A stretch of DNA of 64,000 nt from Cercospora beticola. Its lineage: Eukaryota > Ascomycota > Dothideomycetes > Mycosphaerellales > Mycosphaerellaceae. Below, in pieces: positions 38,737-61,500 of this stretch. A program made the translations under genes and the position numbers. The notes beneath the pieces were generated by a model. It was not told where the DNA came from, searched no databases, and saw nothing but the letters and a program-made list of their open reading frames with translations. Position 1 is the stretch's first letter, and each line of letters opens with the position of its first letter. The stretch is taken from contig NC_088940.1 in NCBI RefSeq assembly GCF_033473495.1, positions 1,178,001 to 1,242,000 on the forward strand. The letters run 5' to 3'.

Positions 38737-39190
38737 CTAAGTACACTGTGTGAATGGTATTCATAGTAACAACATGCCACCCTCCTGTCTCACGCTCACT
38801 GCGCTCCTTGCCAGCCAGCGCAGCCAGCGGCAGCCATGCATAACGCACTACTGTACGCGCCGGGTCCGCGCTACGTGTCAGACCATTTTTGAATCCCACC
38901 CCTGCTCCTGCCTTTCCGCCGTGTGTTGCTGCCTCTCGATGACAGTGAAGGTGATCGGTATCGATGAAAGAAAGCACGCATGCCGTGTAAATGTTCATCA
39001 TCGTCGGATCTGCAGTCCAAACCGGGGACAGCGGGATTGCAGCCCGGCTTACAGCGTTGCACGACACCCTTTCGGCCCTGTTTACCTCGCGAGCATTATC
39101 GTAATGCTATTCGCGATTATGGAATTCCCGAATTGCGAAAGAATTCTCACCGCTTTTTGCTGGCTTGGCTTTCGATAATTGTGCCTGTTT
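38737..39190. other. transition zone at the edge of the RIP block
   Basis: Normal dinucleotide content (CA and TG frequent) up to about 39187. It holds two copies of CCTGTTTACCTCGC (39077-39090 and 39184-39197) and a hairpin. No gene is supported. Confidence 0.5.
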
Positions 39191-39197
39191 ACCTCGC
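39077..39197. repeat. direct repeat of CCTGTTTACCTCGC flanking the composition break
   Basis: Copies at 39077-39090 and 39184-39197 match over 14 bases and continue similarly (GAGCAT versus TAGAGA). The second copy is the last normal-composition sequence before CpA/TpG disappear. Between them lies an inverted repeat, AGCATTA (39092-39098) and TAATGCT (39102-39108), extended by CGCGA (39088-39092) and TCGCG (39111-39115). Confidence 0.7.
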
Positions 39198-39560
39198 TAG
39201 AGAATTATTACTAAGATAGTTAGGTAACTAGTTAAAATTTAACTTTATATTATTATATATATTATAGAGTAGAATCTAGTCGATTAGTATACTCTTTACC
39301 TCTATTATCGTCTATAATTAAGAGGTATTTCTCGCCTTCTAATTCGCCGCTATACTAACTAACTAGAAGCTAGAATAAGAGAGTATTACTCTAGGTAATA
39401 AACTCTTTAATTATCTTATTAAATCGCTAGAAATAATAACTAATAATAGTAGTTTTAAGTACTCGTTCCTCTATTAATTAGCTTATAATATATTATCGGA
39501 ATAGGAGATAGTACTAGTATAGAAGCCTATTATAAATAGAGTTACTAAATAGAAGTATAT

Positions 39561-39565
39561 TTAGT
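39561..39565. repeat. target-site duplication TTAGT (left copy)
   Basis: Five bases immediately left of the 39566 LTR, matched by 46359-46363 on the right. A 5-bp duplication is usual for Ty3/gypsy integrases. Confidence 0.85.
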
Positions 39566-39760
39566 TATAAGAGTAGAATATAGTAATATATTAAGCGCCT
39601 CTAGACTCCCTATCTAGAGATATTAAGAATAATTCTTACCTTCTTAGTTTATATACGTTCTACGTACTTTTGTCCTACGCTAAGTATAAGTAGTACTAGC
39701 CGTTATACCTTAACGCCTAGTAAGCTACGCCTCTCGAGCTATATACTCCTAGCTCTTATA
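39566..39760 (-). repeat. 3' LTR of element A
   Basis: 195 bp, nearly identical to 46164-46358. It starts TATAAG and ends CTTATA, which fits the usual TG...CA termini after RIP. Differences between the two LTRs are about eight, all transitions. Confidence 0.92.
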
Positions 39761-39776
39761 ACTATCTCCTCTCTCT
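39761..39776 (-). other. polypurine tract of element A
   Basis: On the minus strand this reads as a run of G and A (GAGAGAGGAGATAG) ending one base before the LTR. It is the expected plus-strand priming site and confirms the minus orientation. Confidence 0.75.
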
Positions 39777-40079
39777 AATAGAGCTATCTTAGCTTATAGA
39801 GGAGACTATATATTTCTATCGTCTTAGTATAGTATCTAGTACGTTCGTACTACTTCTTATATACGTAAATATTAAGTCGAGTCTTAGCTCGTAGCTAGTT
39901 GCTATATAGTAACTCTTTATAGTAACGGGCTTATTAATAGTATATACTATCGGCGCTCGCGCTACGAGGCGCCGGTATACTATAAATTCGTTATATACCC
40001 TTCGCGTATTTTCTCTATTAACTATCTATATTTAGTAAGCTCTTCGTATCCGACTTATACTATATACTTAACTATCTAG

Positions 40080-41030
40080 CACTTCTCTCGCGCGCGACCT
40101 ATAAGCAATATACCTCCTAGAAGAGCTACTACTACTCCCGCTACTCCGGCCGCTAACCGTCTCTCTTATATAGTAGACGACCTACTAAAGATAGAGGATA
40201 ATAACTACTAGCGCTACCTCCTATATCTCGTAGACTATAAGTCGCGCGGTTCGTATACGTATTATATACTTCGAGTCTACTAACTCCTTATACCTAGCCG
40301 TCGAGCCGCGCTATAATAGCGATATAAAGCTCGGCTAGTAGCTAAACTATATTCGCTATAGTAAGTCTAACTATAAGTATATTCGTATTACTAATCCGGA
40401 CCTTATAAAGTAGGCGTAGCGCGCGCGCTACTACTACCGCCTACTACGTACGAGTAGGCGCGCCGTATACCTCTAGTAGCTCTACTACTATCTCGATAAC
40501 GTAGACGAGGCTATTACTACTACTCTTAAGCGCCTATAGAGTAACTCGGGCAAGTCCGCTAGTATCTTCTCTATACTAAAGAAGGCTAGCGAAGCGCTAG
40601 CTACTAGTATACTCTCTACTAACGAGCTCGTAGCGACGAGTATAGGCCTCGCTATCTAGTATAGTATATTCGAGCTAGAGTATAAGGTATATCTTATATC
40701 CTACTAGTCGCTTGCTCCTCTTATATAGTACTAATTCGTATAATAGAAGCTCCGCCTACTTAGCGCCTCTAGCGAGGCTCTAGACCTCGCCGTCGCCTCT
40801 GCCTACTCCGGCTAGTCTACTTAGAATAAGAGAGAGCTCTCTAAGCTCGAGGTAGATAATAAGGAGGAGAGTAAGAAGGAGGATAATACTATAGACGTAG
40901 GCGTAGGCGGCGAGTAGCCTACGGGCCTCGCGCTCTTCTTCTACTAGACTCTTATAGTACTTTTATATCTCGCTAGCCCTAGGCTATATACTTCTATTAC
41001 GTATAGTATACGCTATACCTATAGATACTA
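40080..41030 (+). pseudogene. antisense reading-frame relic inside element A
   Basis: Between the chromodomain end and the 3' LTR a plus-strand frame, opposite to gag-pol, looks coding over at least 40300-41000: a long stretch broken only by TAG/TAA codons that RIP would create from Gln or Trp, with an NSGKSASIFSILKKASEAL segment and an acidic/basic stretch RELSKLEVDNKEESKKED. The minus-strand reading of the same DNA is Ser/Leu/Pro shadow. No family recognised. It may be an extra ORF carried by this gypsy lineage. Confidence 0.5.
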
Positions 41031-41199
41031 TAAATAAATATCTTCTTTCCTTTTATAATATTTTAGTTTTCTAAGTTCTCGTATCTTAGCGGTTCTCGTA
41101 TCTTAGTAATACTTAGCGTTTAGAATTCTTAGAATTTTCCGCTATTCTACTAACTACTAGTATTACTATTTCTTCCGCGGTTTCGCCTTATATATAGGC

Positions 41200-44100
41200 T
41201 ACTTAGTTTCGCGTTACGCCTCGAATACGTTAAGTGCCTCGTAATCTCCGATATATTCTACCGGCTTCTAGGTATCGTATTCCTCCGGCTATTTATACTA
41301 TCGAACTAGGTACTTCTTTACGCCTTTCTCTATATAGCTTTCTAGTATTCTCTCGACTTCCTATTCGCCTTACTTATCTATAAGTAGTAGGCTAGTAGCC
41401 TACGTATCGCTGCCTTACTAGAGTTCTAAGAGGAATATATAGAAGATATTATAAATCTACGAGCCGATTAGTAGAGCTAGGCGGTACGCCTACTTTCCGA
41501 CTACGTTAATAACCTTAAATAGTCTAGCGAATCTATCTACTAGCTTCTTCGATAGTATCTTTAACTAGAGGTTCTTTATAGATAATAGGACTAAGTCGCT
41601 AACCTTAAATTCTATCGGCTAGTACTTCTAATTAAAGTACTTAGCCTAAGATTCGCTTACTTATTACTAGCGCTTAGTTAGCTCTTCGTAGTTCTGCTTT
41701 AACCTCTCTATAGTATTCTTCGCTACTAGTACCTCTTCTCGAAGAAGCGCGTCCTAAGCTTCGCCTATATTTCTCTTACGCGTTTCTATAGAAAGGTCTA
41801 GATTAAACCTATATACTACTCGAAATAGCGATATTTTAAGCGTAGTATTCGTACTATTATTATATACGAATTCCGCTAACGATAGGATAGACGCCTAGTC
41901 GTCCTATCGCTCGCTATAATAGATATATATATACTACTTAAGCGTCTAGTTTACGCGCTCGGTTTAACTATTAGTCTACGAGTAGAATATAGTACTTAGC
42001 CTACGTTTTATATATATCTCGTAGTAGAAGTCTAACTAGAACTAGCTAGTAAAGACTAAGCCTCTATCGCTTATAATACTAGCTAGTACGCTATATAGTC
42101 GTATTACTTTATTAATTAGGATATCCGTAAGCTCTACGCTAGTATAGTACTTTGTCGTTCGGACGAAAGTTACTATCTTCGAGTAACGATCTACGATTAT
42201 AAGGATCGTATTAAAGATACGGCTATTCTACTTACTAGGTAGAAGATCCGTAATAAAGTCTATAGATAAATCCTTCTAAGAATAGTTAGGTAGTAGGAGT
42301 ATAGCTATCTCGCTATAGGAGCGATAGCGCCTCGCTTTTAGCTTCTAATAGCTACTATACTACTCGACGTACTACTTTATATCGTTGCTAACCTCCGGCT
42401 ACTAGTACTTCTGCTTAACTAACTCTACTATCTTATCCTTACTAAAATAGCTTACTAGGATATCGTCGTAGTATATATAGATTACCTACGTCTATAATAC
42501 TAGGTCGTTCGGTAGGTATAGAGCCTCTTCCTAGTATATATAGCCGTCCTTAATAGTATATTTCTCGCTCGCTATACCTTTACGTTCGGCCTACTTATAT
42601 AGTGCTTTTGCTTTTAGATCGAGCTATACTAATATAGCGGTATATCTAATAATTATATCCGAGACGTTAGCGTACGGCTGCTCTTATATAGCAATAGCGC
42701 TAGCAACTCGTAAGAGTAGAGTAAAGCTAAACGGACGAACCGAATAGTTAACTACTACCGTAATATACCTACTATCGGGCAGCGCTACTCCTCCGCTCTT
42801 AACTACCGCTATAACTACCTTTAGAGTATCTAACTAAGCCTAGTAAGTAGCTTTTATATAGGTAATAACTAGGCCGCTTATAAGTATAGTGCTCTATACC
42901 TAGAGTTTCTACTATAGTAATAGTAGGAGATTACTTATCTCCTTCGCCTCTTATATATAGTCGCTACGTCTAGATAGCGTATCGGCTAGATTAAGCTTAC
43001 TAGCTCGATAGCTAATAGTAAAATTAAAGGAAGCGAGGAATATCGCCTACTTTACTTATCTACCTATTAACTACTTAACGCCTATAAATCCCTTAAGGTT
43101 AGTATAATTAATAAGTACCTTAATCTTATACGTAGCGCCTTCGAGGTATAGTCGCTACGCCTTAAATGCCTTAACTACTACGAGTAGTTCCTTATCGTAA
43201 ACCTCGTAGTTATATTTAGCGTTAATTATCTTCTATAAGAAGAAGGTAATTAGATACTATTCTACTTCGAATAGTTAGCTTAGGATACTAGCTACTACGA
43301 AGTCGGAAGCGTCGGTTTCGACTCGTAGGCGTAGCGTAGAGTTAAAGTGCCTTAGTAGTAGTATAGTCTAAAATCGATTTTTTAGCTTATAGAACGCCTA
43401 CTCCTTAGCTACTCTCTACTTAATTAGCCCTAGCTTCTTTCTATCCTTTATACTCTTTAATAGCGCTATTAAAGGTACTATAACTCTCGAATATCCGAAG
43501 ATAAATCGATAGTAGAAGTTCGCGAATCTAAGGAAGGATTAAACCTCTATTAGCGTAGTTAGAGTTAGCTACGAGGCGATTATAGCTACTCTACTTAGAT
43601 CTATTATAACGCTACTAGTAGTTACTATAAATCTAAGGAAGTCGACCTTTTTCTAGAAGAACTTATACTTAGAACGCTATACGTAGAGTCTAAACTTACG
43701 GAGCCTCTTAAGTATAGCGTATACGTCTCGTACGTGTTCCTCGCGTATCCTACTATAGATTAGGATATCGTCTAGGTATACTATATAGCTTATATCGACT
43801 AGCTCTACTAGCGTACGGTTAATATATACTTAGAACGTCGCTAGTATATTCGTTAAGCCGAAGGGTATTACCTTATACTAGAAATAGCTGTAGCGCGTAC
43901 GAAACGTAGTCTTCTAGCGGTTACTTAGCTTAATCCGAATATAGTAGTACGTATCGGCTAAGTCTAAGGATATAAACTATATAGCTCCTATAAGTCTATC
44001 TAGCGTCTTACTAATTAGAGGTAGTAGATACCGGTTCTTAATAGTAATCTCGTTTAGCCTATAGTAGTCGATATATAACTATAGCTTACTATTCTTCTTT

Positions 44101-46140
44101 AGTACGAATAGGATAGGCGTATCCGCCTCGCTATCGGAACGCTCGATCTAATCGTACTCGAGTCCTATCTTTAGGTACTCCTTAAGCTCGTCTAATTCTC
44201 GCCCTAACTAGTAATATAGTAGACGGAATAGTAGTATAGTTCTAGGCCGCAGGTTAATCGTATACTCTATACTATTAACTAGCTTGCTTCTTATTTCCTC
44301 TATCGGATTAAGAATATCGTTAAAACGATAGAACTCTTTAGAGATAGGCTTAACCTTATCGCCTATCTTACTTAGGCTTACTATAAATACTACTAGTGCC
44401 TTCTAAAGATCCTTAAAGAACTTATAGGCTTCTCGGACTTCGAACTTACTAAAACGATCGTTACTATATAGCTATTTATCTATAGCGCTACTAGCTAGTA
44501 CGCGCTAAGTACGTCGCTATAGATAGCCTAAGATTACGTTAGGAGTTAGTATATTATATATATAGAAGATACTACCTATAGATCGCTCCTTACTACTAGA
44601 GTCTACGATCCGTATACGTATATAGTATATACTATAATAGTGCTCTAATTTACTTATAAAGATAGTAACTAGCGGCAGAGCCGTATTCGGCCTTATTAGT
44701 AGGTTATACTATAGTATAAAGGCCCTTAATATTATATTAATATCTATAGTATCGTCGAGAAGGAAAGCGGCCGGCTTACTATCTAACTACGTTTCGACTT
44801 CTTCTTCTATACGCGTCGCTAGTATACTCTAAACCGGTAGAGAGTTATCGCTATCTAGTTTAGCGCTAGTAACTCGCGTATTATCTCTAGCGCTTTAGCT
44901 TTTTTCGCTCTCTACTCCTTTACTATAGTTACTCTACGAATAGCTAGCTTATTACTATCTTTCTTAAAGTTCGGGTAGTTAGAACTAATATAGCTAATCT
45001 CGCTATATACGAAGTACGTAGGTTACTAGCTCTTGCCTTTGCCTTTGCCTCTATATTTACTTTTCGGCTTACTACTATAGGTATCGCGTTAGCCGCTAGT
45101 CGAACTAGAGGCCCTTTTATAAGGAGTATCGCTATTAGTACGCTTACGCTTAGCCTACTTATTCTCGGTATTACTATAATATAGCTTATAAGGTATAGCC
45201 TTCTTAGCTTACTAGAGGCGCCTCGCTAGGGCGATAAGGTCGGTATACTTATTAGAGATAGTATAGTTCTTAATAATATCCTTATATAGCGATAGCTTTA
45301 GTTTTATAAGGAACTAGCGTACTAGCTACGCCTTAGTATAGTTACCTAACTAAGACTCTAAGTTACTAAGGTCTATTACGAACTATCGTACGCTCTAGCT
45401 CTTACTCTAGTATATATTCTTATATTCTACGGTTACGAGAAGTATACGGTTCGCTTAATCTCCGACGATATTATATAGGAATTAATAGAACCGAGACTAG
45501 GTATATTCTATAGGTAGAACGCCTAGATATTTATTATACTATACCTCTTACGCTTCGCCTACGAGGTATATAATACCTATAATTACCTTCTAGTAATCCG
45601 TCGGAAACCTCTTTAGTATAGCTATAAAGTTTACCTCGAGAGTATAGATAAATTCGCGTACCTTCTTTATAGTCTTACTTTTAAAGAGCTTAGGCGTACG
45701 TAGCTTAATAGACTCGTATAAGCTATACTCGTCGCTTTCGGAATATACGCCGCTCGTATAACTTACAGACGCGCTACTTTGCTAAGGTATTAGCTATCCG
45801 AGGCCTAGCGCTATCGCGCTTAGCTATACTAGCAATTTAATTATCTATACCTCTCTTAGTAAGCGTTCGTTCTTAGCCTTAAGAGTATAGATTTCTAGCT
45901 ATTCGCGTAACGTATTATTTTTAGCTTAGAGGCGCCTACGTATTATATACGCGTTACTAGCGTTATCGGTATTATCTATATCCTCGTCCTATTCCTCTTT
46001 AGCTTATACTATTCCGGATTCTAATATCTCTTCGATATAGCCTAATAGCTATCTATTATTCGGTACGTCGTCGTCGCGATTAGTCTACTAGGCAGATACG
46101 TTTCGCGTAAGTATAATAGGCCTTAATAGATCGCTACTCT
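41200..46140 (-). pseudogene. gag-pol relic of element A
   Basis: Recognisable segments from 5' to 3' on the minus strand: Gag; zinc knuckle whose Cys/His codons have become Tyr (TYFVYSEISYISSNYP, 45.03-44.96 kb); protease; RT with YLDDILIYS and FANFYYRFI; RNase H with ETDASDFVVASILSQ and YEVYDKELL; integrase with an HHCC-like region, VDRYSK and ASIISDRG; and chromodomain (EVERILESYIEKGVKKYLVR, then PEEYDT and PVEYIGDYEAL). Stop codons sit where Trp or Gln is expected, for example three TAGs at tryptophan positions of the chromodomain, so the damage is RIP, not random decay. Confidence 0.9.
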
Positions 46141-46163
46141 TAATAAGATAGAAGAATTATAAT

Positions 46164-46358
46164 TATAAGAGTAGAATATAGTAATATATTAAGCGCCTCT
46201 AGACTCCCTATCTAGAGATATTAAGAATAATTCTTGCCTTCTTAGTTTATATACGTTCTACGTACTTTTGTCCTATACTAAGTATAAGTAGTACTAGCTA
46301 TTATGCCTTAACGCCTAGTAAGCTACGCCTCTCGAGCTATATACCTCTAGCTCTTATA
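46164..46358 (-). repeat. 5' LTR of element A
   Basis: 195-bp partner of 39566-39760 and the promoter-bearing LTR for the minus-strand element. Compared with the other copy it keeps two TGCC where the other has TACC, and loses CG or CCG at two sites, so the copies received RIP changes independently. Confidence 0.92.
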
Positions 46359-46363
46359 TTAGT
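46359..46363. repeat. target-site duplication TTAGT (right copy)
   Basis: Matches 39561-39565 and marks the right edge of element A. Confidence 0.85.
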
Positions 46364-46899
46364 AGAAATAGAATAGATACTTAAAATATATTAGTAAATA
46401 AATATAAAATTAAACGAGAGGAGGGCGAAATTGCTCCTAACTCGGAACGTAAATATATATAAATTAGGACGCTATTTCGCTACTCGATAGCTCTAATACG
46501 ACTTAGCGTACGCTATAGCCTACCGCTCCTTAACTCTCCTAGTTAATAGACCTTTACGTAGGTAGTAGGCTCTATATATTACCTCGTAGAGCGCGCGCCT
46601 CGCTATATCTCTATATCTATACTAATTACTTCTTCTCTCTTCTATTTCTCTAAGGTATATAAAGGCGCTAGATCGCTATCTCTCGAGTTACTAGCCGGCC
46701 GGACTTATCTATTTATTCGTTATTCCTCCTTATATCTACTACGCTCCTATAGTACTCTACTAGTCGGCCTAGATATAGTTGCTCTACTATAAGGAATCGT
46801 AAGACGAATAGTATATAGTCCTATATCTAACGTAAGCCTTATATATAGTAGAGTCCTTCTAGCTATAGGCTATATAGTAGAAATCGGTAACGCGCTTTC

Positions 46900-49170
46900 T
46901 TAGGCGGAGCGCTTTAGACGTATAGAAGTAGAGTTCGATAAGGTAGTATATATATAAAAGATTTATACTAAAGGAAGTAAGTAGCTATAGAGCTAGGTAA
47001 AGAGATTATAGTATAAGTATATTACTAGTATAAGTAGATTACGACGTAGTATATAGTACTCTACTAACCTAATAAACGTAGATATTATTAGATAACTAGG
47101 AAAGATACTCTCGAAACGCTCTAAGTAATATCTATCGCTATTATCTACTTATTCTTTTACTAGTTACTAGAATAGAGGTACGAGACTTTATAAAGCGTAA
47201 GTACTCTATAGACGTACTAGAATACCTTCTATATTATATAGAAGACTAAGATAGGCTATATTATAATCGACCTTACGATTAAAAGTTAGATATATAGTAT
47301 ATATAGAGTATTAACGCTCTTATTCTAGCTTAGTTTCTACCGCTTATATATACTATAGGTCTAGTAGCGTCTAGCGTAGGAGTTCCGATTATAAATAGAG
47401 AAGAGACCGAAGCCGATTATACGAGCTAAGAATAAATTTAAACTACTAAAAACCTTATAGACCTCGCCTAAGTTTACGCTCGACTACGAATAGTTAAGAG
47501 TATAACTCGCCTTAATCCTCTAGCTTATAGGTATTACTAGTAACTAGCTAGGTACGCTCCTAGGACTCCGGTACGAATACCTTAAGCTTATACTTCTTCG
47601 AGATCCTATAGAAAGTAAATAGCTATAGCTTCTAATCGAGCTAACGTTTAAGTATACTAAAGGTTACCTAGGCTTAAAAGATACGTATATAGTGCCGCTA
47701 TACTATAATCGGTATTTAAGAATATAATCTAGATTACTAATATATATCTTAGGAATATATTTAGTATTCTAGATATCCCGAGCGAACTCTACTTTCTTCT
47801 CTACCTATAGATACTCCTCTTAAGCCTAGTATTTGCCGACGAAGCCTTCGTAGCGCCCGGCCTTATAGAACTAGAAGAGCTTTTCTATCTTCGAGTCTCT
47901 ATAGGTCTTAACTAGCTAGAGTTACTAATTAAGAACTCGAAGACTAGTATACTACTTTTTCGTAAACTAGAGAATACTATATATAGAATTATAGTCTCTA
48001 CTACTACTCCTATAATAGATAATTAGCTATATAGTAGACTATCTATACTCGGTAGAATTATAGGATTCGAGTATATAGTAAAACCTTACTACTTCTATAG
48101 AGGTAACGGCGAAGCTCTAGATAGTAGTAGTAGGTTCTATTCTAGCGTAGAGTAGATTAGTCGCTAAAAGCTTATAGATCTTATTAGTAACGTATAGCAG
48201 AACCTAATCCTCTAGTATACGAGCTTAGTAGTATTTTAGTATAACTACCTATCTCGTTATATTACTTAAGATATATATACTATCTACCGGAGCCTCGCGC
48301 TCTAGACCGAGGTTATAAGAGCTACGAGTAGTATAACTCGTACTATCGATCCGCGCCGACTCTATATATTAAACGAGATCTAAGTAGTATAAATTATATA
48401 TTACCTAGAAGTAAAGCTACTATATAGAATACGAAAGAGCTTAGTTAAGAAGATCTATACTAAGTATAGGACGTCTTCTAGAGCTCGAGGTACTTAGCTT
48501 TATAAAGCTTACTAGAGAGTAGACCGATAGTACTAGATTAAAAGAAAAGTAGTATATAAGATTATAATAGCTAATATTCTATAGAGATATTATAAGTAGC
48601 AATCCGCTATAGATATTACGAGTTAGCTCGAACGCTCTCCTATTAAGCGTAATAAGAAAACGCTATCGAAAGTCTAGCTATATAGTTAGCTTAGCGAAGA
48701 GTAGAATTATACTATAAAAGCTCTCTTTACTTTCGTAATATCCGATTATATCGAGGAATATCGACGATATACGAATACTATAAACGTAGTATTAGCGCTA
48801 AGTAGGAGCTAGAAACCTATCGAATAGAAGATATATCGTATAAAGTTAGCGTATATTAGTACGTACGACGGAGATATAAGTATAGATCTTCTATACGAAG
48901 TAAAAGTACTATAAGATCTGTTTCTAATCGAATATACTCCGATATAATATATATTCTATATTAGTAAGGCAGACCTCTATATCGATAAACGCTTAAAGAA
49001 ATTCTATAATTATAATAGGCTTAGGAGATATTTTTACTAGAAGTACCTATAGTATTATATAAATAATTAGCCGATTAGCTATCCTTATCTAAAGTGCTCT
49101 AACGTAAATCTTACTAACTTAATATATCTCTAAAACTATACTACGAGAGTTTATAAGACTATAATATAGA
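46900..49170 (+). pseudogene. DUF3435 tyrosine recombinase relic (Starship-captain/Crypton-like family)
   Basis: Read through RIP on the plus strand, this matches the fungal DUF3435 family (often labelled FluG-domain protein). Landmarks: VQLALILQLIGIT near 47.5 kb; ELTFKYTKGYLGLKDTY near 47.65 kb; VFADEAFVAPG near 47.83 kb; the recombinase box YRGNGEALDSSSR (48.08-48.13 kb), whose arginine belongs to the catalytic set; and LILQYTSLVVFQYNYLSRYIT (48.2-48.27 kb, Gln read for TAG), with Tyr where a catalytic His is expected and NYLSR carrying the tyrosine nucleophile. LALQTEVIRATSSITRTIDPRR follows (Gln read for TAG). A degraded C2H2-type finger (KCSNVNLTNLIYL) ends near 49.15 kb. Dozens of in-frame stops make it non-functional. 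The 5' limit is approximate. Confidence 0.82.
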
Positions 49171-49199
49171 TAGTAGATATTATAGATATATAGAGCTAA

Positions 49200-51000
49200 T
49201 ATAATTATATTATATAAAAGTCGACGTTAGGGAATACGTATACTAGTACGGATTAGATAGGTATTTCTCTAACTATAATTTCTTATTATAATAGATACCT
49301 AAGCGTTAGTAGCTTAGCCTAAACTCGCTTCTAGACGAAAAAGTACTAGCTCTTCTAACGTAATATCTAACTTACTTCTAATATAGGTAAAGTCGGCCGC
49401 TATCGATAGCGCTTCTTAATTCGCCTATAAGACTCTTAAGCTAGTATATAAACTCGCTATATCTATATAACCTATCTTTAACTATATATACGCTAGTATT
49501 ATTAAAGCTATAGTAAGGCTACCGAAAGCGGTAGCTATATTCTAATCTCTAGTTATAAATTTCTAACTTACTATAATTATTATAATAAAGTAAGGAATAC
49601 CTATAATATTTATTTCCTACCTTAATATATTAAACTCGTAGTCGATAAAAATACTATTAATAGGTATAGATAAACCTATCGGATTTACTCTACTTAGTAA
49701 TTTTAGATTTATAATTACGCTAGATTAGTAAGCTATTCGTATTACCTTATATAAAAGATATAAGCCTTACTTTCGATTATAGATATAGCTCTTTAGAACC
49801 TATCTAGTAGTTAATAGAAAGATAGTTTCTATAGTAGATAGTTCTTAAAAGTAGTAGATAAAGTCTATATACTATTTAGTATTATCCTATCGGCTTTTAT
49901 ATTTTATCTAAACCTCTATACTATACTAGTTAGTCTTAAAGTTATCTAAGAGCTATCCTTTAGAATAGAGAGGAGAGTTATACTATATTATAAACTACTC
50001 TCTAAAGGTATTAAAATCGCTATAGTATAGATACTTATCGAGTATATATTCGCTTATCTTTTCCTTAGCCTTATTATAAAGTTTACTTATAGCTTCCTAT
50101 ACTTCGTAGATATCGTTTACTACTCTAATTTCTACTTTAAAGTAATTTTCCTATTTTATATATAGTACTAGCTTTCTAGGATTAGCTTTATATACTTAGT
50201 AGGAAATTTCCTAACTTACTTCTCTTTCCTCTATAATCCGAACTCTCTAGAATAGTAAAAGAGAATACTACTAGCTCCGCTACGACTCGTAGTACTATTT
50301 TATATATTCCTAGATTACTACTTTACTTTCTCTAGAATATTACTAGCGAAATTCCTTCTATTTTTTAACTTTACGATATTTTCGTTCTAAGATAGGAATA
50401 GGTAATAGCTATAAAAATGTTTCTCGGTATTCTATTACTTAAGCCTAATCTTTCGAAAGATAGTATACTAGTATAAGAATAGCTTTATATAATTTATTCT
50501 TATTATTCTAATATATAAGGAGTATAGCTTATCTATCTTTACTAGTAAAGAGGCTAATATTCTCGTTAATATAATTTATATAACGACTTCTATTACTATT
50601 CTATACGGCTAATCCGGTAGTACGATATAGCTCTTCTAAAGAATAAGCTTATCTATTTAAGGTTTATAGTAGTCTATCTCTAATAGATATTCGTAGGTTA
50701 GGGCCTAATTCTAGATTTTAGGATACTATTACTAGTATAAAAATTTCTTTAGAGGCTATTAGGTTATTATAAATAGTTATTAATTATAGAGAGAGTAACT
50801 CGAATCCGGAGGAAGTTTAAGTTACTTTTAAATATCTCGATTTAGGTCGTAATAAAGAAGCGACTAGGCTAGCTACGAAGTACTAAGCTATAAGAAGCTA
50901 AGACGAGTAAAGGTTGCTTATATACTATTCTCTAACCTCTTTAGATATAGTATAAAGAATTCCGGTAGAGAACTATAGGAAGCTACTTCCTTCTACTTTA
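49200..51000 (-). pseudogene. unidentified coding relic
   Basis: On the minus strand about 50.4-49.3 kb reads as one long frame broken only by RIP-type stops (ILERKYRKVKK, then KEFR, SRESKVVI and EYIK, later ISKLYNKAKEKISEYILDKY). Charged and helical, and I recognise no family. It may be a gene of the element that carries the captain relic, or another transposon. Confidence 0.35.
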
Positions 51001-53850
51001 TAAGTAGCTTACTTCTCGATATATCTATAAAGAGATTAATTATAGTAGCGTTTGCTCGGATAATAGACTCTATTAAATAGTATAGTACTTATATAGTTCC
51101 GGCCTAGCGCGAGAAGCTATATTATAACTATAGAGGTAGAGTAGCTATTATATAAGAGCGACAAAGCTATTTCGCTTAGCGCTATTAGTCTATAATATTA
51201 GGAATTAATAAATACGGGCGATATAGATTAGACGTAAGTAGTAGTAAGCTATAGAAGCTACCGTCTATAAAGCGATTAATAGAGTAGTATAGCGAAGTAT
51301 AATAAAACTAGAGTAAGGTCTAGATAGTAGGCTAGATAGTAGTTAGTATTATCTAGGAGTTAACTTACTACTTTATAGAAACTCCCTTCTCTTATAGTAG
51401 CGGAGCACTCCTCTAGATACGTCTTACTAAGTACTATTAAACAGATTTCCGAGCTCGTAGTCTAGATATATAGAAAGCGCATTATAGTTATTTAAGTAAA
51501 AGCCTATTAAAATCGCTCTACTATCGTCCTTCTAACTTCTAGTAATACGCTTTAGGCTATATTAGCTCTTAGTTATAAGAGAATAGTATAGATAAATTTT
51601 ATTAGAGTAATACTCGTAAGGTATAGTAGGTTAAGTACTAGCGTCGAGGCCTAGTAAATAAATTAAAGAGCGTTTCTAAGAGTATATTCGTAGCTCGAGA
51701 CGCGATCGTAAGACTATACTATTCCGTCGTTTATTATCTAGAACAACGCCTTACTTAGCTAGCTATAGTCCTCGCGCCGTTAGTACGTCCTTTATAGAAA
51801 CTTAAGGATCGAGTAGAGCGTTCTATAGCGAGTAGATAACGGACGACTTCGAGCCGGTAGTAAGCGAAATAAAGCTAGCGCCTCGAGAGCCTTATCCTAG
51901 CGTATTTCTAGCCTATCTTACTTAGTATTAATTCCTACGCTATTGCTCGACTTAATTTATCCCGTCTATTAGTAGCTCTATTACTAATAGTTCTTTATAG
52001 TTCTAAGATAAGCGACTCTTTTTTATTAGCTATAGTAGTTATCGGCTTAATCTCTATTAGCTTCTAAGCTACTCGAGCTCTACGTAATACGATCCTTAGC
52101 TATAAGAACTATTCTAGGCAAGTTCGCGGCCGCTTAGATAAGCTTAAAGATCTACTTAGTATTCTTAGAGAGCTAGAGAGTATTATATATAATAATAGTA
52201 GATCGAGATTTATATTACTATACGTTCTCTTAAGTAATACGATACTACTTATAAATAGTTTATAAAAGCGCTACGTAATTGCAGAGCCTTAGATAATAGA
52301 GTATCGAGTACTAACTTTACCGGCTAGCTAAAGTACGATATATAGTTATAGAATAAATATCTCGGGCCTACTAAGCTTCTACTATATAGTAGCGCGTCGA
52401 TTTTCTTACTCGCCGAAAAAGTAAGACTATAGGCGCGTCCTATTATAGTCGCTAATTTATCTACTACTAGATCTATATACGACTATAGAGATAGTAATAA
52501 TTCCCTAGGTAAAGAACGAGCTCTATACGACTCGAGTTTATTATAAAAATACCTATTCTAAGTATCTCTCTATTCTATACGTTTTTAAAAAACGTATATA
52601 GCGAAGGCAAGAATAGATAAAGGCCGATATCTTATAGAACTTCGTTATACTATACTCGAGTAGAAACGAGTTCGAGTTCTAAAAAGCTAGTCTCTCCTAT
52701 TAGTAATACGAAATTATAAATATACTACTTCTACTTTTCTAATAGTACGACTATTAGGAAACGATATCTAGTACTTTGCTCTATCGTACGATACGAATAT
52801 TATTATAATTCTATTCTACTTATCTAATAATCCGAATAGCTTTAGCGCGACTATAGCGAGATCCCGAGTATACTATATTATTATAGAGGTATAGAGTAAG
52901 GTTTAGTACTAGTATATACGTATTATAGTAAGGTCTACTAATATATTTATTCCTAGATATTATAGCGCGACTTCTAATATAGATTAATAATATATAAAGT
53001 ATAAATATACTTTAGTTTATAGGTTTCTCCGAGTAACTATACTAGCTACCTTTATAGCGATAAACTATATTCTTCTTATTAATAGTCGCTATATAAGTAT
53101 AGTAAACCTATTCGGTAGTCCCTTAAATAACTTTAGTATTCTAATAGAATACTATATTTTAACGACTCCTAAGCTCTCCGAATAACTACTACTCTTAAAT
53201 AGTATTAAAGTAGATAGCGATAGCTTAGGAGCTATACTAAAATATATAAAAACTATAATTTAAATATCGAATATAATAGCGCTATAATTAAAGAGTAAGT
53301 AAGTAGTATAGTTATTATTAATATAATATATAAGTAAAATATAAAGTCGTAGTATCTATAAACCTTTTAAATAGATTAATTACTAGATATCTTCTATAAG
53401 TCTCGTTTATATAGTATTCGTAATAGATAGGGAAGGATTATATAGCTAAGTAGCTTTAGCTTAATATCTAAGTACTAATCGATAATAGTATAGCTCTAGC
53501 TTAAGCAAATCCTACTACGATACCTACTCTATAACTGCCTATAGCTATACTCTATATAGTAGCGAATATTCTACCTATAGATACGACCGAAAAATACGAT
53601 ATTACTCCGGCCGCTATTAAACCTAGGTTATATTTAGCTTTACTATCTTTCTAAGTAGAGGAATATACTACGTCTAGGACGAATAAGCTATAAGCGGCGA
53701 AGTATATCTCCCTATTATATCTATCTACTAACTACTATCTAAAGGAGGTACCGGCTGCTAAGTATAGCTAGTATAGTAGCGGCGGCTATATAGTTATACT
53801 ATAATAATTACCTCTCTCTCTATCTTAAAAAAGTATCGTCCTTAATATAG
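51000..53850 (+). pseudogene. unidentified coding relic(s)
   Basis: Plus-strand stretches read as protein through RIP stops, for example RGRLDKLKDLLSILRELES near 52.13-52.18 kb and NLFGSPLNNFSILIEYYILT near 53.1-53.16 kb. No family recognised. Part of 51.0-51.9 kb shows no convincing frame. Confidence 0.35.
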
Positions 53851-53859
53851 CGTATACCT

Positions 53860-56800
53860 TAGTACTAAATACGCGAGAGTACGTCTCGGTCTCTAAGCGC
53901 GAGCCTTCTTTATATCTCTTAGCTATCTTAATATCTCTAGGCTAACTAGCGCTCCTTCTTAGTAGTAGCCTACTTTAAGGCTTCGGTAGCTTTACGCTTT
54001 ATAGATCGGGTAGAAGTAGCTATAGTAGTCTCTTTCTAAGCTTCTACTAAGTAGCTCGAGCGGCGCTTAGTCTTCTCGATAGGCGTTCCTATAGAACTAT
54101 CTATTAGGCTAGTCTTTATTATAGACTTAGCTAAAGTTAGGCTAGTCTTTATTATAGACTTAGCTAAAGAGGATTTAGTAGCTAAGGAGTTAAGCTTAGG
54201 TAAGAAGGCTAAGAGTACCGACTTTCTAGTAGTCCTCTAGCTCTAGCTTTTTAGTATCTCGGTCGCGGTAGGCTTACTCTTCTTTAGCTAGGCCTTAGAG
54301 GTAGCCTATTAAAGATTATTAGACTTCTTCTTATAGTAAAGAGGCTTAGCTAGAGCCGCTATAGAGAGTTAGAGCTCGTCCTCTAAATCTTCTTCGATCT
54401 CTAAGGCTAGTAGAGAGTTAATAGCGCTATCGGAGTTATTATCGGTAGTATTATCTATTAGGCGTAAGGATAGGTATAAGTAGAGCGCCGAGTTATCCTT
54501 CTATACCTAAGTAAGAGCCTAGTAGCGGCCGTAGATAGAATATAAGAAAAGGAAGAGGCAGTCTAGATATAAGGATATAGTATACTTAAATTTTAACTTA
54601 TCGACTATATAGAGTAGCTTCCGACTCTTCTTCGGAGAGTTATAAGAGTAGAACGTAGCTTATAGCAGAGCAACTGTCTTAAGAAAGTATACTAGAGCCG
54701 GCGTCTACTCTTCCTTATAGAGTACTTCTAGTACTAAGGTCGGAATAGAGACGATATTAATCTCTACTAGCTAGTAGATATTATCCTCGTTTATAACGTA
54801 GTCGGAAGGATCGATCTAATTGCTCGTATAGTTAGCTTCGTACTACGTATAGTTTATACTATCGAGAAGATAGTATTTGTCGCTCTTTATATAGTATACC
54901 TTCTTATAAGCTACCTCGCTATAGAGAATATAGCGTCTATATCCTAGACTATAGCGCTTACTATTACCTTCCTAGATAATATATAGACGGCCGTAAGACT
55001 TATATATATCTAGGATACTACTCTTTAAATCGAAGACTACTAGGTAGAGCTTATAGAGAGTATCGAATAAGATATAGCTAGCGTCCTTTAGCTCGTATAA
55101 TCGTCCGAGATAGACGTCTTCTAGTCGGAAACTAGCTAGTAGTAGCGTATCTATATATACGAAACTCTAAGCGTCGAATAGTAAGATCTTAAGGATATTA
55201 ACTAGCGCGTTCGAGTACTCCTAGTCGAAGGCCTTCTAGTAGTCGAGATCGGAGTACTCTATAGTATTATACTAATACGTATCGAAGATAGTATCGTCGC
55301 TAGTAAGTACTATAGCAGCCGGCCGTAGAGCTAGATATAGTATATAGATAGGGACGCTAGTACTACTCTCTTCGTCGGACTCGTTCTAACTACTAACGTT
55401 ACTATATACGATACTATTCTTATTATACTCGACTTTAGGTAGAACGTTCTAGTCTTCTATATCTAGCCTATACGTATCCCTTCTAAATATAAATAGGCCT
55501 ATAGGATCGAAGGGAACTATATATACGAGTTAGTCGTCTAATTCCTTAATAATAGTATAGTCGGTAGAGTTAGAGCTATAGCTCGCGAATTCGATATAAT
55601 AGTAGTAGCCGTTATCGACGAGATAGACCTTATCGCTACTATTATAGAAGTAGTTATATAAGAGTAAAGGCCGTAGGCCTTCTAGTTCGTCCCTATTATA
55701 GACTAGTAGAAGCTATATAGTAATAGATCGGATAATACTATTTATAATAGGCTAGACGTCGATAGGCGCGCTATAGTTACTAAAACCTATTCTACGAAAT
55801 TTTCCTATATCCTAGCTATATTACTATACGTAGTAGTTAAGTCTCGTTAGCTCGTAGATACTACTTACGTTAGTATTTATCGTAGTCTAGATTAGGCGTA
55901 GCGTATAAAAGACTACGCCGTTTACCTCTACCTAGTAGTTAGAAGATCTATAGACAAAATTCTTATACTAGAGTCGAATAAGGTCGACGAATACGTTCTC
56001 CTCTATAGCCGAGTAGGTAGTTAGTATATTCTAGTTAGGCTTCTTAGCTACTCTAGCCTACTAGAAGTAGCGCTTCTAGGCGGCCTAATTCTATATAAGA
56101 AACTAGTTCTTATTAGTAGTATTATAATAAATAGTATCTCGTTCTATAAATTAGAGGAAGCGTCCTAGTATTAAGAGGTATAGGTAGTCGTAGTCTCTCT
56201 CGAGTAAGGCTAGGATAAAAGTATAAGCTATATTACCTAAGGCTTCCCTATAGAGGGCGTTAAGAATATCGGCTATATAGATAGCCGCCTAGTCGTAGTT
56301 AATATCGCCGGCGGAGTAGCTAGCCTACTCGGCTCTTACAAGATCTATAAGTATATAGGCCGTATACTATAATAGGTTATAATTAGTATATATATCCTTA
56401 TTTATACCGAATAAGCTAGAGGAGATATAGGCGTCGAACTAGGCTAAGGCGTTTAGTTAAGCTTAGAGCTTAAAGGAGGACGCGTAGAGTATAGACGCTC
56501 CTTCTCGAGTATCTCGTCCGCGCCTAGTAGGTAGCGTCCTAGGCTAACTACTACTACCGACTAGTAGAGATTCTTATCTAGGTTCTATAGCTATCTATTC
56601 GGTTTATATCTTCCCGAGCTTATCGTCGCTCTATTCGCCGGTAACGCCGACGTCCTAGTCGAGTAGTCTGTTATAACTATATTTTCTACCTATTTCGAAC
56701 GTTAGAGAAATTGCTATCTATACGAGGTAGAAGTAGTAGTATAGGTTAAATAGAAGCGGTATAAGTATAGATAGGATAGCCGGCTTAATAATATTATATT

Positions 56801-58400
56801 AGCCGACGATATCCTATCTTATCCTCTCTATAATATAGGTCTTATAGCGGGCGGTCTTAGTAGCGACCTAAAAGGCTCTTATATCGGTAGGCTTAATATA
56901 GACCTTATAGTAGCCTAGTAGATAGCTGCGTTTTAACTAGAGTAGCTTACTTACGAGAGTATCGTCCGCCTCGTTTAGAGCGACTACTACGATCTATTTA
57001 TATACTACCGGTAGGGAAATACGATCCTAGCTCTAGCTAGGATAATATAGGATAACGGCTAGTAGGCAACGGACGGTTTCGAGTATAAAATTAAAGCTAT
57101 AGATTAGTATATCGTATAGGAGGTAAGGCGTCTATTATACTCCTAGTTTTATCTAGGATAAGAACTATAGTACGAGCTATAGATCGTAGTAGAAGATAGT
57201 AGTATAGGTATAGTAGGTCTCGACTAGTAGTTAAATCTTCTATATAGTAGAGAGGCTAATTAGTAGGTAGTAGTTATATAAACGGGCGTATACTCTCGTT
57301 ATAAATATAGCGTTAGCTCTATAGTCGAGAAAATCTATAACTATAGACTAGATAGAGAGTAATAGCTAGGCGTCGGTAGTTATATCGATTAGTAGCGTCT
57401 AAGTCGCGCCGACTATTAGAGGATAGCTATCCTTAAAAGTAAACTAAAGATCTATATCGGTTAGAGAGAAGGCCTAGATAGATATAATTACTATAATTAG
57501 GCTATATATTATTACGTCGCGCTTCTACTATATAGTAACCGGGACGATATAGTACTTGCCTTATATTAGTACTATCGGGACCGGAGTATTCGCTACGTCT
57601 AGTAGTAGAAGGCCGTCGAACTTAGTAAGGAATTTAATAGAGTTTCGCTAGAAGAATAGGAAAGTAAAATCCTTAGCGACTATCGCGGCTATAATAGTAG
57701 GAGCGCCCTCTATCTCTATTATATAGTCGCCCTTCTCGCGGCCTATTTGTTTAATATATTTACTATAGAAGTCGTCCGAGGTCGAGATAGTATAAAGGAA
57801 TAGGTTTAGTACTAGCGTCGGAAGAGTAAATAGATAGTAAACGTCTTCCTTCTTCTACTCTATAGTCGGCTTAGCTATATTAGAGAGTATTATATTCTTT
57901 AGTAACGTTATAGACGTAGAGATAATTCTATTCTCGAAGACCGGCGTCTATATTTCGAGCGGCTTAGCGACTAGAGCCGTTTGCTTAAGGTCGCGAATAT
58001 TAACTAGAATAGTCTAGCTCTTATTAAACTTCTTATATATCTTTTCGCGTAGTAGGCCGAGCCGGTCGAGCTAGTCGTAGTTCGTTACTAAAGAAGCTAT
58101 ATTACTAGCTATATAGCGGACGAGATAGTTATAGTATTTATTACGTACTCTATAGAGCTAGCGAATACGTAAAGCGTAGACTTCCGGAGGTAGAGTTAGA
58201 GCAAAAATAGTATCGCTTAACGTATAGATAGACGTAGGTACGCTATTAGAGTTAAGGATATAGCCTTACCGATAGGTATTAGATATATCTAGTAGAAGAT
58301 ATAGCGGAGATACTAGTAGCTAAGTTTACTACTATCGTATAATAGAAATTTCTAGTAGCTAGTTACTATTAACTATAAAACACGCTAGTATAAATATAGA
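53860..58400 (-). pseudogene. long unidentified reading-frame relic, 3' of element B pol
   Basis: A minus-strand frame reading about 1500 codons with only RIP-type stops. It contains stretches such as LTLPPEVYALRIR, YDxLDRLGLLREKIYKKFNK, DDFYSKYIKQIGREKGDYII and PTIIAAIVAKDFTFLFF. The C-terminal part (54.5-53.9 kb) is Lys/Ser/Thr-rich, like a disordered tail. It is not RT, RNase H, integrase or Gag as far as I can tell. It follows the chromodomain of element B directly, so it may be an extra ORF of that element or a gene of a different one. Confidence 0.5.
54104..54169. repeat. 33-bp tandem duplication
   Basis: Two perfect copies, 54104-54136 and 54137-54169, equal to 11 codons in the minus-strand frame (LAKSIIKTSL-like unit). 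Perfect identity inside RIP-mutated DNA suggests either duplication after RIP or equal mutation of both copies. Confidence 0.85.
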
Positions 58401-58599
58401 CGTAAACGCGAAAGTAAAGTGCGACGTTACTAGCGTAGTCTATGCTTAATATACGTCTAGCGCGTAGTATCTCTATCCGCTTTTAAGTCGGAACGTAGAG
58501 GTCGTAGTAATAGTAAATACGAAAGTAATATAGTACGGCGGCCTAAAAAAGGCTAGGCCTCCTACTAGCGCTAATAGTTACTACGTCGTAGTTCCTACT

Positions 58600-61500
58600 A
58601 GTAAGGCAAAGGATAGTCTTAGTCGTAATTCGCTATTAAATCTATAGTATCGCGGAGGTCGTCGATATCGTACTAGATATTATAGCTATAGTTATAGTCT
58701 TTCTATTTTACTAAGTACTATAGCTAGCTATAGGACGTCCTACGATCGAGAAGCCTCTCGATCTTAAAGAAAAGTACGTTATTATCGTCGTAGTTAGCTA
58801 TCTATACCGGGCCTAGTTCTAGTAGATCGTAGTCGTAAGAGTTATTACCTTATAGGTACGGCTCTAACTAGGCTACCGAAACGACTAGATAGATCTTTAT
58901 TACTAGAGAAAGGACGAGTCTATATACGAGTCGTTCTATAGTACGATCTACTAGGAAAGAGCTAGCTCGCTAGTAATAGTACTTATAGTTATACTATCCT
59001 AAAATCTCGTACTCTCTATATAAGTAAAGAAGGACTTACTATCCTAGTACGAATCGGATAGAGTAGTATACTATATCGTACTAGTCTTTTATCGCTACTA
59101 CTACCTATACTATAGAGTTAGCGGCTTAGTCGCGTACCTCCTAGCGGATAGTAATATAGTCGGCTATAGGCAATTTAGCTAAAGGTAGGAGTACGTCTAA
59201 GTTATTCTTAAAACTCTAAATAATTATATTCGAGATTTCGCCGGAAGAGGTATTATAGGAATTATTAAGCTCGGCTTAAATATATAGGAGAGCCTCTATC
59301 TAATTAGCTACTAGGAAGAACGTAATAAAATATCGTAATACGATTTCTATAGTCTAGTTCGTCCTTTTACTTTAACTATCTATCTAAGATTAATAGGTAG
59401 TCGTAGCTAGGAACCTAGTACCTAGTTCTTAAAAAGCGGACTTTATAAAGTTAGATAGCTATCTCCGATTATAGTCGCTAATTATTACTACTAGTAGAGA
59501 TCTCTCGTAGACAATATAGCTATATAGCTAGGTAGTACTATATTCGGCTACGGACTAGTCTTCTTTTACTTTTATAAGGATAACTCTTTTCGAGAATTTA
59601 TAGGTCTTAGTAAGGAAGCTATTAAAGCCGTCTACTAGTAGAAGGCCGAAGATCTAGTTAGCTATAACTATATAGTCTAGTACTACGATAGCGTAAATAG
59701 GATTTAACTCTCTATATAGCTAGTAGTAGTAAGTCTAGTTTAAGATATAGTCCGAGTAGTACTTAATATAAAGATAGAGTTCCTTAGCTAGCCTATAGAT
59801 ATAGAAGGAGGCAAAGACGTAGGTATACGTATAGTAAAATCCGGAATAGTAGTAGTCGTTATAGGCTATTCTAAATACCTCCTTTATTAAGGAACTAGGA
59901 ATATAAAGGCGTTCGTAGCTATTAGTATTGTCCTTAAAATATATTAGGCCGTCGCGTAAGAAGAACTATAACTCTAAGAGTACTACTTCTTATTCGCTAT
60001 CGTTTTCGTCCTTACCTTTAAGGTCCTAGATACGCTACTACTCCGTAGCTTATAGTTGCTCTAGCTACTATACCTAAGCTAGGTCGTTCTAGTATCTATA
60101 GATTAAGTCGCGCTTAAACTCCTCCGATAACTCGACTAAGATAGAGTAAAACGCTATCGTCTCTATAGACGTATATATACGACTAGTATTCTTATCGATT
60201 ATTATAGCGTAGAAATACTATACGTCCTCGTGCCCGTATAGGTAAAGGTATATAGAGTTATCGACTATATTATAGGCTTAGTTAAGATCGTCGTATATAA
60301 GAGGATCGAGAGTATCTATATTCGTATATCTCCGGTCGTCGATTAAGCGACTAAGTGCGTCCGGAACGCTATATAGACGGCTAGGCTAGTAGATCGCAAC
60401 TATATCGTAGAACTACGATAAGTACTAGCTAGCTCGTATAAGGCAAAGGTTTATATAGTCTAGAGACGTAGTACTAGTTATCGACTCGGATACTATAATT
60501 CCTAAAGTAGTAGTATAATCTATAAATATAAAGATAGGTTTCTACGAGGCCTATAAGACGTAGTATAGTTTCCTTATAGTCTAGATAAAGCTAGCGACTT
60601 CTAGTTCTATTACTAGATATTACGATTCTATATCTAATAGAGCCTTACTTAAGTATATAACTAGCTAGACTTTAGTAGCTAGAAAACGAACTGCCTTACT
60701 ACTATCGGTAGAGGTAGAGTCGCCTTCTACTATATACGCGACTATAGTAAAGCTATCGTAGCTAGAATTAAGATCGATATAGAAAGGACGATAGAGGTTA
60801 GTATAGTAGAGGAAGAACGCTATTCGGTAGATCTTAGCTAGAATATCGAAATAGCGACGCTACTAGTTAAGGTTTTCGGCGTTATCCTACGCTCTAGTTC
60901 GCGCTACGAATCGCTTATAGAGATTGCCTCGATTAGGTCCCTATTATAGTAAGTACTTCTTCCTTTCCTCGAATAGAGCTATAATTTATAAAAAGTATAG
61001 GATATAGTGCTATTACTAGCCTGTAATACTAATATAAAATTCTAACTCCTTAAGTATCTATAGAAATAGAAGGTCGAGAATAGTACGAACCTTTTCTTTA
61101 TAGATAGTATAACTAAGGCTACTAACTCTCTAACTTAGAAGAGCTGCGGACGGGTACCTAAGAAAGGTTTTCTAGAGCGTAATACTAATATCGAAGGAAT
61201 TAAGAAGGCCGAATAGGTAGTTAAGGTATATAAGGTAGTCGTTAAACGTCTGCGAGAAGATAATAATATTATTAATATATATATAGTAGAAGTCTCGAAA
61301 CGGCTTAAGGATATAGTTAAGTTACTACTAGACGTATTAGACGCTACTAGCGTACTCTATAATTGCGATATTTATCTATTTCTATCTATAGTAGCTATTA
61401 ACTATAAATTTATAGTAGTCGCCTTTAGCTATAGCCTATTAGTAGAAGAACGATACTATATCGATTATAGTAATATATTCCGCGCTATAGAGAGCGTCTA

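What the first reader, a model, noticed from the sequence alone, without database searches (positions are those of the whole stretch)
46900..49170. Fossil DUF3435 recombinase at the head of the RIP block: a possible dead Starship
The plus-strand relic carries the DUF3435 landmarks (ELTFKYTKGYLG, RGNGEALD, NYLSR, TRTIDPRR). DUF3435 tyrosine recombinases are the captains of Starship giant transposons and sit as first gene, reading inward, near the 5' end. Here element A (6.8 kb) lies between the block edge and the captain; subtracting it leaves only about 1 kb between the edge at 39.19 kb and the gene. Position and direction therefore match Starship architecture. Starship membership itself is inference, since stand-alone DUF3435 copies also exist.
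Basis: partly seen in the sequence, partly recalled or inferred. Interest (0 to 1): 0.9.

Follow-up and report, generated by a model that had tools for sequence, protein, structure and literature searches.

The report
Dead Starship transposon in beet fungus
The window holds the first part of a roughly 19-kilobase gene-carrying fungal transposon, led by a recombinase gene and destroyed by the fungus's own mutation-based genome defence; a sister copy on another chromosome and relatives with other cargo indicate that it once moved as a unit.

Summary
In detail: window 46.87-49.17 kb, plus strand, is a heavily stopped DUF3435 recombinase gene (PF11917, 138.6 and 44.1 bits in two frames; 43 stops in 673 codons read). 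The Starship idea is supported by the rest of the genome, which is Cercospora beticola or a very near relative. Nine other long copies exist. In seven of the nine the match begins at 46398-46404, with unrelated DNA before it, so the element's 5' end is about 46,401, not 39.19 kb; retroelement A lies outside. Downstream the copies fall into cargo groups. The window copy and one on contig C5 are collinear over 19,122 aligned sites (1,252 transitions, 27 transversions, evenly spread), broken only by different nested insertions. So 5' end, captain and about 16 kb of cargo moved as one unit and were then RIPped; a 2.8-kb stand-alone element does not explain this. The element runs on to about window position 85,935, beyond the window. 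The exact 3' end, direct repeats and an allelic empty site remain unresolved. Verdict: a RIP-killed Starship-type element, one cargo variant of a captain lineage with at least four.

The parts
46401..53663 (+). First segment of the dead Starship-type element (5' end, captain relic, first cargo). It continues outside the window after nested element B, at window-scale positions 66584-69156 and 76651-85935.
   Evidence: Shared 5' edge; collinear with the C5 copy
46401..46434 (+). Conserved 5' terminus, in most copies (A)TATAGAATTAAACGAGAGGAGAGCGAAATCGC or close to it
   Evidence: Alignment of nine copies, window included
46870..49166 (+). Relic of the captain: DUF3435 tyrosine recombinase with a C2H2-like tail by eye; start extrapolated, probable intron near 47.70-47.75 kb
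   Evidence: PF11917; tblastn of P0002; stops
52020..52235 (+). Cargo relic: PF17111 match (now named PigL_N; I recall it as the former N-terminal domain of fungal STAND proteins)
   Evidence: 28.2 bits, cut-off 27.2, the only match in six frames of 49200-53660
53664..64000 (.). Element B, an LTR-type element nested in the Starship (continues to window-scale 66583; terminal repeats of about 142 bp)
   Evidence: Many copies elsewhere; terminal repeats; site without B in the C5 copy
39562..46358 (.). Element A, an LTR-type element outside the Starship, 43 bp before its 5' end
   Evidence: 199-bp terminal repeats, 95% identical; absent at the C7 site
39074..39561 (.).
46359..46403 (.). Right part of the same shared flank, up to the Starship's 5' end (the C7 match fades out over the first bases of the element)

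Best explanation
A dead Starship-type transposon. When alive, its captain (the DUF3435 tyrosine recombinase at the 5' end) would have excised and inserted a unit of about 19 kb: 5' end, captain, and about 16 kb of cargo including a gene with a PF17111 domain. Shown: the unit is present at two chromosomal sites (C6 and C5) with unrelated 5' flanks; its 5' end and captain are shared with other copies that carry other cargo; the ten long copies of this captain all carry stops. Inferred: that the captain catalysed the move; that the C6 and C5 copies were nearly identical when RIP hit them in sexual cycles; that retroelements then nested in and around the wreck.
For: Captain relic. Common 5' edge: in seven of nine other long copies the match begins at 46398-46404, with no shared DNA to the left except one 36-bp match. 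Shared right-hand neighbours within groups. Collinearity of C6 and C5 over 19,122 sites with 27 transversions, evenly spread over captain and cargo. Clean nested insertions, different in the two copies. In the searches made, most of the cargo was found at length only at these two places. One-sided empty site on C7. Length of about 19 kb is above the 15-kb floor that one study uses (PMC12153272, passages).
Against: The 3' end rests on two copies, and on C5 an LTR-type element sits at that point. No direct repeat or terminal inverted repeat could be established. The right flank of the C7 site was not found beside the element on C6 (a weak negative, as 40 of 120 candidates were scored and a short abundant repeat filled the list). 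Only one weak Pfam match in the cargo of this copy. The captain was not placed in a named captain family.
Confidence: 0.88

Rival explanations
1. A stand-alone DUF3435 element of about 2.8 kb (46401 to about 49195), Crypton-like and without cargo; what follows is only its surroundings.
For: The stretch common to all groups ends near 49180-49200, at the end of the gene.
Against: Left neighbours differ in all nine copies compared while right neighbours are shared within groups. Captain and cargo of C6 and C5 have the same low transversion rate.
Confidence: 0.04
2. A chromosomal segment was duplicated between C6 and C5 by ordinary recombination, not by the captain.
For: The exact 3' end and direct repeats are not shown.
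Against: The left end of the duplicated stretch falls on the 5' edge that the other captain copies share, which a random breakpoint would not.
Confidence: 0.07
3. One reading: the element begins at the block edge of 39.19 kb and A is nested inside it.
For: Sharp G+C and RIP change near 39.2 kb.
Against: In the search of 39100-39561 the only other place was C7, which has no captain match; the shared 5' edge is at 46.4 kb.
Confidence: 0.01

Closest known systems
Starship giant transposons
   Same: DUF3435 captain first at the 5' end and reading inward; cargo moved with it; same captain with different cargo; insertion in AT-rich, repeat-rich DNA; a length just above the reported lower bound of 15 kb (PMC12134995 and PMC12153272, passages).
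   Different: Small; several copies in one genome; the ten long copies all RIPped. Direct repeats, terminal inverted repeats and captain family are not established.
Cercospora kikuchii DUF3435 proteins CKM354_001124100 and CKM354_000633300 (P0002, P0003)
   Same: Best named matches to the relic, 37% and 36% identity over 83% and 82%; open frames of 701 and 700 aa with PF11917.
   Different: Not stopped. In the tree they lie nearer to a second RIPped captain lineage of this genome than to this one. Their surroundings were not seen.
Cryptons and solo DUF3435 genes
   Same: Tyrosine recombinase without other transposition genes (recalled for Cryptons; solo genes are mentioned in PMC12134995, passages).
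   Different: Here a long cargo is shared between copies.

Membership tests
Starship | DUF3435 (PF11917) tyrosine recombinase as captain | tested here: met
   as a relic with stops
[quoted passage not shown]
   5' end about 46,401, gene about 46.87-49.17 kb on the plus strand
Starship | Cargo of many kb carried as one unit to more than one site (floor of 15 kb in PMC12153272) | tested here: met
   19,122 sites collinear between C6 and C5, 27 transversions
Starship | Short direct repeats at the ends, often terminal inverted repeats | tested here: inconclusive
   3' end uncertain; only very short AT-rich candidates seen
Starship | Empty site without the element | tested here: inconclusive
   Left side only, in a paralogous stretch of C7; right side not found; no other isolate available
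Starship | Accessory genes typical of Starships (NLR-like and others; list recalled) | tested here: inconclusive
   One PF17111 match in this copy; HET and dynamin domains in a related copy
Starship | Captain falls in a named captain family | not tested
   No reference captain library at hand; captains are reported not to form one clade (PMC12134995, passages)
Crypton or stand-alone DUF3435 element | The mobile unit is only the recombinase gene with its ends | tested here: not met
   Left neighbours differ, right neighbours shared within groups

The most novel reading that the evidence does not exclude
A small, multi-copy Starship lineage that worked as a portable captain cassette: a constant 2.8-kb head (5' end plus captain) joined to changing cargo, with cargo also exchanged between copies, and extinguished by RIP in this genome. 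Ten long copies with at least four different cargo tracts, and a C8/C2 pair whose captain end is old (about 3% transversions) but whose far cargo is nearly identical (0.2%), would be a fossil record of cargo swapping.
Probability: 0.3. Interest if true: 0.65.

Novelty: new member of a known kind. Interest (0 to 1): 0.5.

Why it matters
Starships are mostly found through strain comparisons and readable captains. Here a dead one could be traced inside a single genome from copy comparison alone, after near-complete RIP. It adds a multi-copy, multi-cargo captain lineage in Cercospora; three searches of the paper library listed no paper describing a Starship or DUF3435 captain there, though that library lacks most subscription journals. 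It bears on the open question of how far RIP limits Starship copy number (raised in PMC12153272, passages).

Tried and rejected
Stand-alone element: rejected from the asymmetry of neighbours. Edge at 39.19 kb: rejected. My first guess that the shared element ended at C6:1247156: rejected when C6 was found to resume the C5 sequence at 1254651. Pfam scans of other cargo stretches with X at stops: nothing in L043:1-5000 (six frames), L043:4951-9200 (six frames), L031:2584-5156 (six frames) and L045:1000-3600 (three frames). Cargo at C6:1254651-1256100 was not scanned, and C6:1256165-1257599 was in no genome search. Downstream of the C1 copy: no other full copy, only short matches. No PDB relative of P0002 at E up to 1. 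Catalytic residues and the C2H2-like tail were judged by eye only. The tree leaves the fork below this captain lineage open and warns of letter bias in the relics; it was not used to decide Starship status. Group 2: dynamin and RBR-type genes as cargo are likely but not firm, because that pair is mosaic in age and a run of T marks the C2 end.

Full report
WHERE IT IS. The window is G000:C6:1178001-1242000 of a 36.07-Mb genome in 10 contigs. The protein of window ORF 17111-18322, minus strand, is 100% identical over its 403 residues to CB0940_08360 of Cercospora beticola; the next named species, C. zeae-maydis, is at 88%. So the host is C. beticola or a very near relative. This rests on one protein.

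THE OBSERVATION. The four motifs are there. PF11917 is matched over almost its whole length in two frames, and the whole-genome search finds the same. Residues 76-255 of P0002 (C. kikuchii) map to 47101-47700 and 251-700 to 47754-49163. The frame change near 47.70-47.75 kb recurs at about the same profile place in other copies, so it is probably an intron. 43 stops lie in 673 codons read. The block is RIPped almost to exhaustion: (CpA+TpG)/(ApC+GpT) is 0-0.05 in its five stretches, against 1.34 in window 1-38900.

HOW MANY COPIES. PF11917 gives 48 matches in the genome at E up to 1, many of them pieces of one gene; 43 of the 48 contain stops, and the five without stops are all on C4. By DNA, window 46360-51000 gives 23 rows, self and short pieces included; they hold nine other long copies (about 2 kb or more): one on C1, two on C5, five on C2 and one on C8. 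Each of the ten, the window's included, carries stops.

THE 5' END. In seven of the nine the match to the window begins at 46398-46404; in C2:2556299 it begins at 46373 and in C2:2043065 at 46562 (longest reach of the loci of each copy). Aligned, nine copies (window included, C2:2043065 left out) share the terminus TATAGAATTAAACGAG or close to it, and nothing to its left. An all-against-all BLAST of the left flanks (43-488 bp each, C6 in two pieces) gave one match, of 36 bp. The mobile unit thus begins at about 46,401, 0.47 kb before the extrapolated start of the captain.

THE CARGO MOVES TOO. To the right the copies fall into groups: the window copy on C6 with C5:4712978; C8:998403 with C2:2477975, 2559279, 728165 and 896384; C2:2043065 with C2:2520349; and C1, whose downstream has no other full copy. 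The copy at C5:3564948 matches only to 48375. C6 and C5 are collinear in five segments (window-scale 46400-48689, 48673-52005, 51995-53663, 66584-69156, 76651-85935): 19,122 aligned sites, 1,252 transitions and 27 transversions, 0-0.22% transversions per segment. That is what a unit that moved once and was then RIPped would show. C6 carries element B (53664-66583) and a second nested insertion (69157-76650, flanked by a repeated 13-base word); C5 carries others, of 1.18 and 0.67 kb. The C5 copy shows the B site without B. Searches that cover most of the cargo found it at length only at these two places. Limits: only 40 of 85 candidates were scored, C6:1256165-1257599 was not searched, and short or weaker matches (for example 354 bp at 86%, and a family at 64-69% with a few short pieces up to 82%) occur elsewhere.

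WHAT THE CARGO WAS. In the window, PF17111 at 52020-52235, just over its cut-off. The other stretches scanned give no Pfam match. In the second group, the C8 copy has an un-RIPped stretch (index 1.33) and shows a HET domain (26.9 bits) after the captain, then Dynamin_N and Dynamin_M (50.2 and 38.1 bits). Its far part, with a piece of an RBR-type gene, is shared with C2:2559279. But that pair is mosaic: 15 transversions in 6,544 compared sites of the far part, against 48 in 1,357 of the near part. So for group 2 only the captain and HET region are safely one old unit.

THE 3' END AND THE SITE. The C6/C5 match stops at C6:1263935. On C5 an LTR-type element sits there; on C6 a different repeat begins 170 bp on. 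Direct repeats could not be established. On the left, C7:2698602-2699143 runs through window 39074-39561 straight into 46359-46403, without A and without the Starship; over 518 columns from 39100 the identity is 91%, and the match ends within the first bases of the Starship. The C7 right flank was not found beside the element on C6 (a weak negative: 40 of 120 candidates scored), so the site is shown on one side only.

RELATIVES. Protein searches found DUF3435 proteins, many called C2H2-type, in Mycosphaerellales, other Dothideomycetes, lichen fungi and beyond (6 hits; 103 hits; both scored a capped 7,998 candidates). In a tree of 42 rows (29 of the database proteins and 13 relics) the ten relics of this lineage form one group (100/100); three relics of another lineage sit beside C. 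kikuchii P0003. The tree warns of letter bias and long branches. According to PMC12134995 (passages) captains do not form one clade, so a tree alone could not decide.

VERDICT. A dead Starship-type element, one cargo variant among at least four of its captain lineage: a new member of a known kind. The detail of interest is the multi-copy, multi-cargo record killed by RIP. PMC12153272 (passages) says that some species accumulate copies of one Starship and that RIP may limit their number; PMC12289983 (passages) reports nested Starships and gain and loss of cargo in Verticillium. Three searches of the paper library listed nothing that describes a captain in Cercospora; the one paper naming both C. 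beticola and Starships (PMC13041039, passages) mentions Starships only in general.

Noticed in passing
L003:2800-4050 and L046:1-1400 (about G000:C8:1001050-1003700): Un-RIPped stretch inside an otherwise RIPped copy of the same captain lineage, with a HET domain; its C2 counterparts are RIPped. Why RIP spared it is unexplained.
   Followed up: partly
L046:8289-9764 (G000:C8): RBR-type gene (IBR domain, 32.8 bits) with normal composition; the C2:2559279 copy shares its C-terminal part with no transversion in 450 compared sites and then ends at a run of T.
   Followed up: partly
G000:C8:674602, C1:2135042, C10:212641: A second RIPped DUF3435 lineage, beside the C. kikuchii protein P0003 in the tree.
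   Followed up: partly
G000:C4:1341362-1341970 and C4:3502643-3503632: DUF3435 matches without stops inside, 37.1 bits (in an open frame of 1147 codons) and 46.9/32.7 bits; the only unbroken ones over the cut-off in this genome.
   Followed up: no
window 53664-64000 and on to L031:2583: Element B, 12.9 kb with terminal repeats of about 142 bp; seven other near full-length matches to window 57001-64000 at 90-91%.
   Followed up: partly
L031:5732-10000; L044:6091 to L042:2228: Very abundant LTR-type element (349 candidates, 30 scored), 6.14 kb with 238-bp repeats in the C5 example.
   Followed up: partly
G000:C5:4709507-4710688 and C5:4705500-4706172: Two short insertions in the C5 copy whose flanks overlap by 17 and 11 bases in the alignment to C6, as target duplications would.
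   Followed up: no
L043:2316-3966 and L043:9203-10000 with L045:158-1265: About 70% similar stretches in opposite orientation, one inside the Starship cargo and one just beyond its 3' end; possibly another related element next door.
   Followed up: no
G000:C1:1393992-1394907 and C1:1426055-1426970: Two ends of element B in opposite orientation with identical scores, flanking the C1 captain copy; perhaps an inverted duplication.
   Followed up: no
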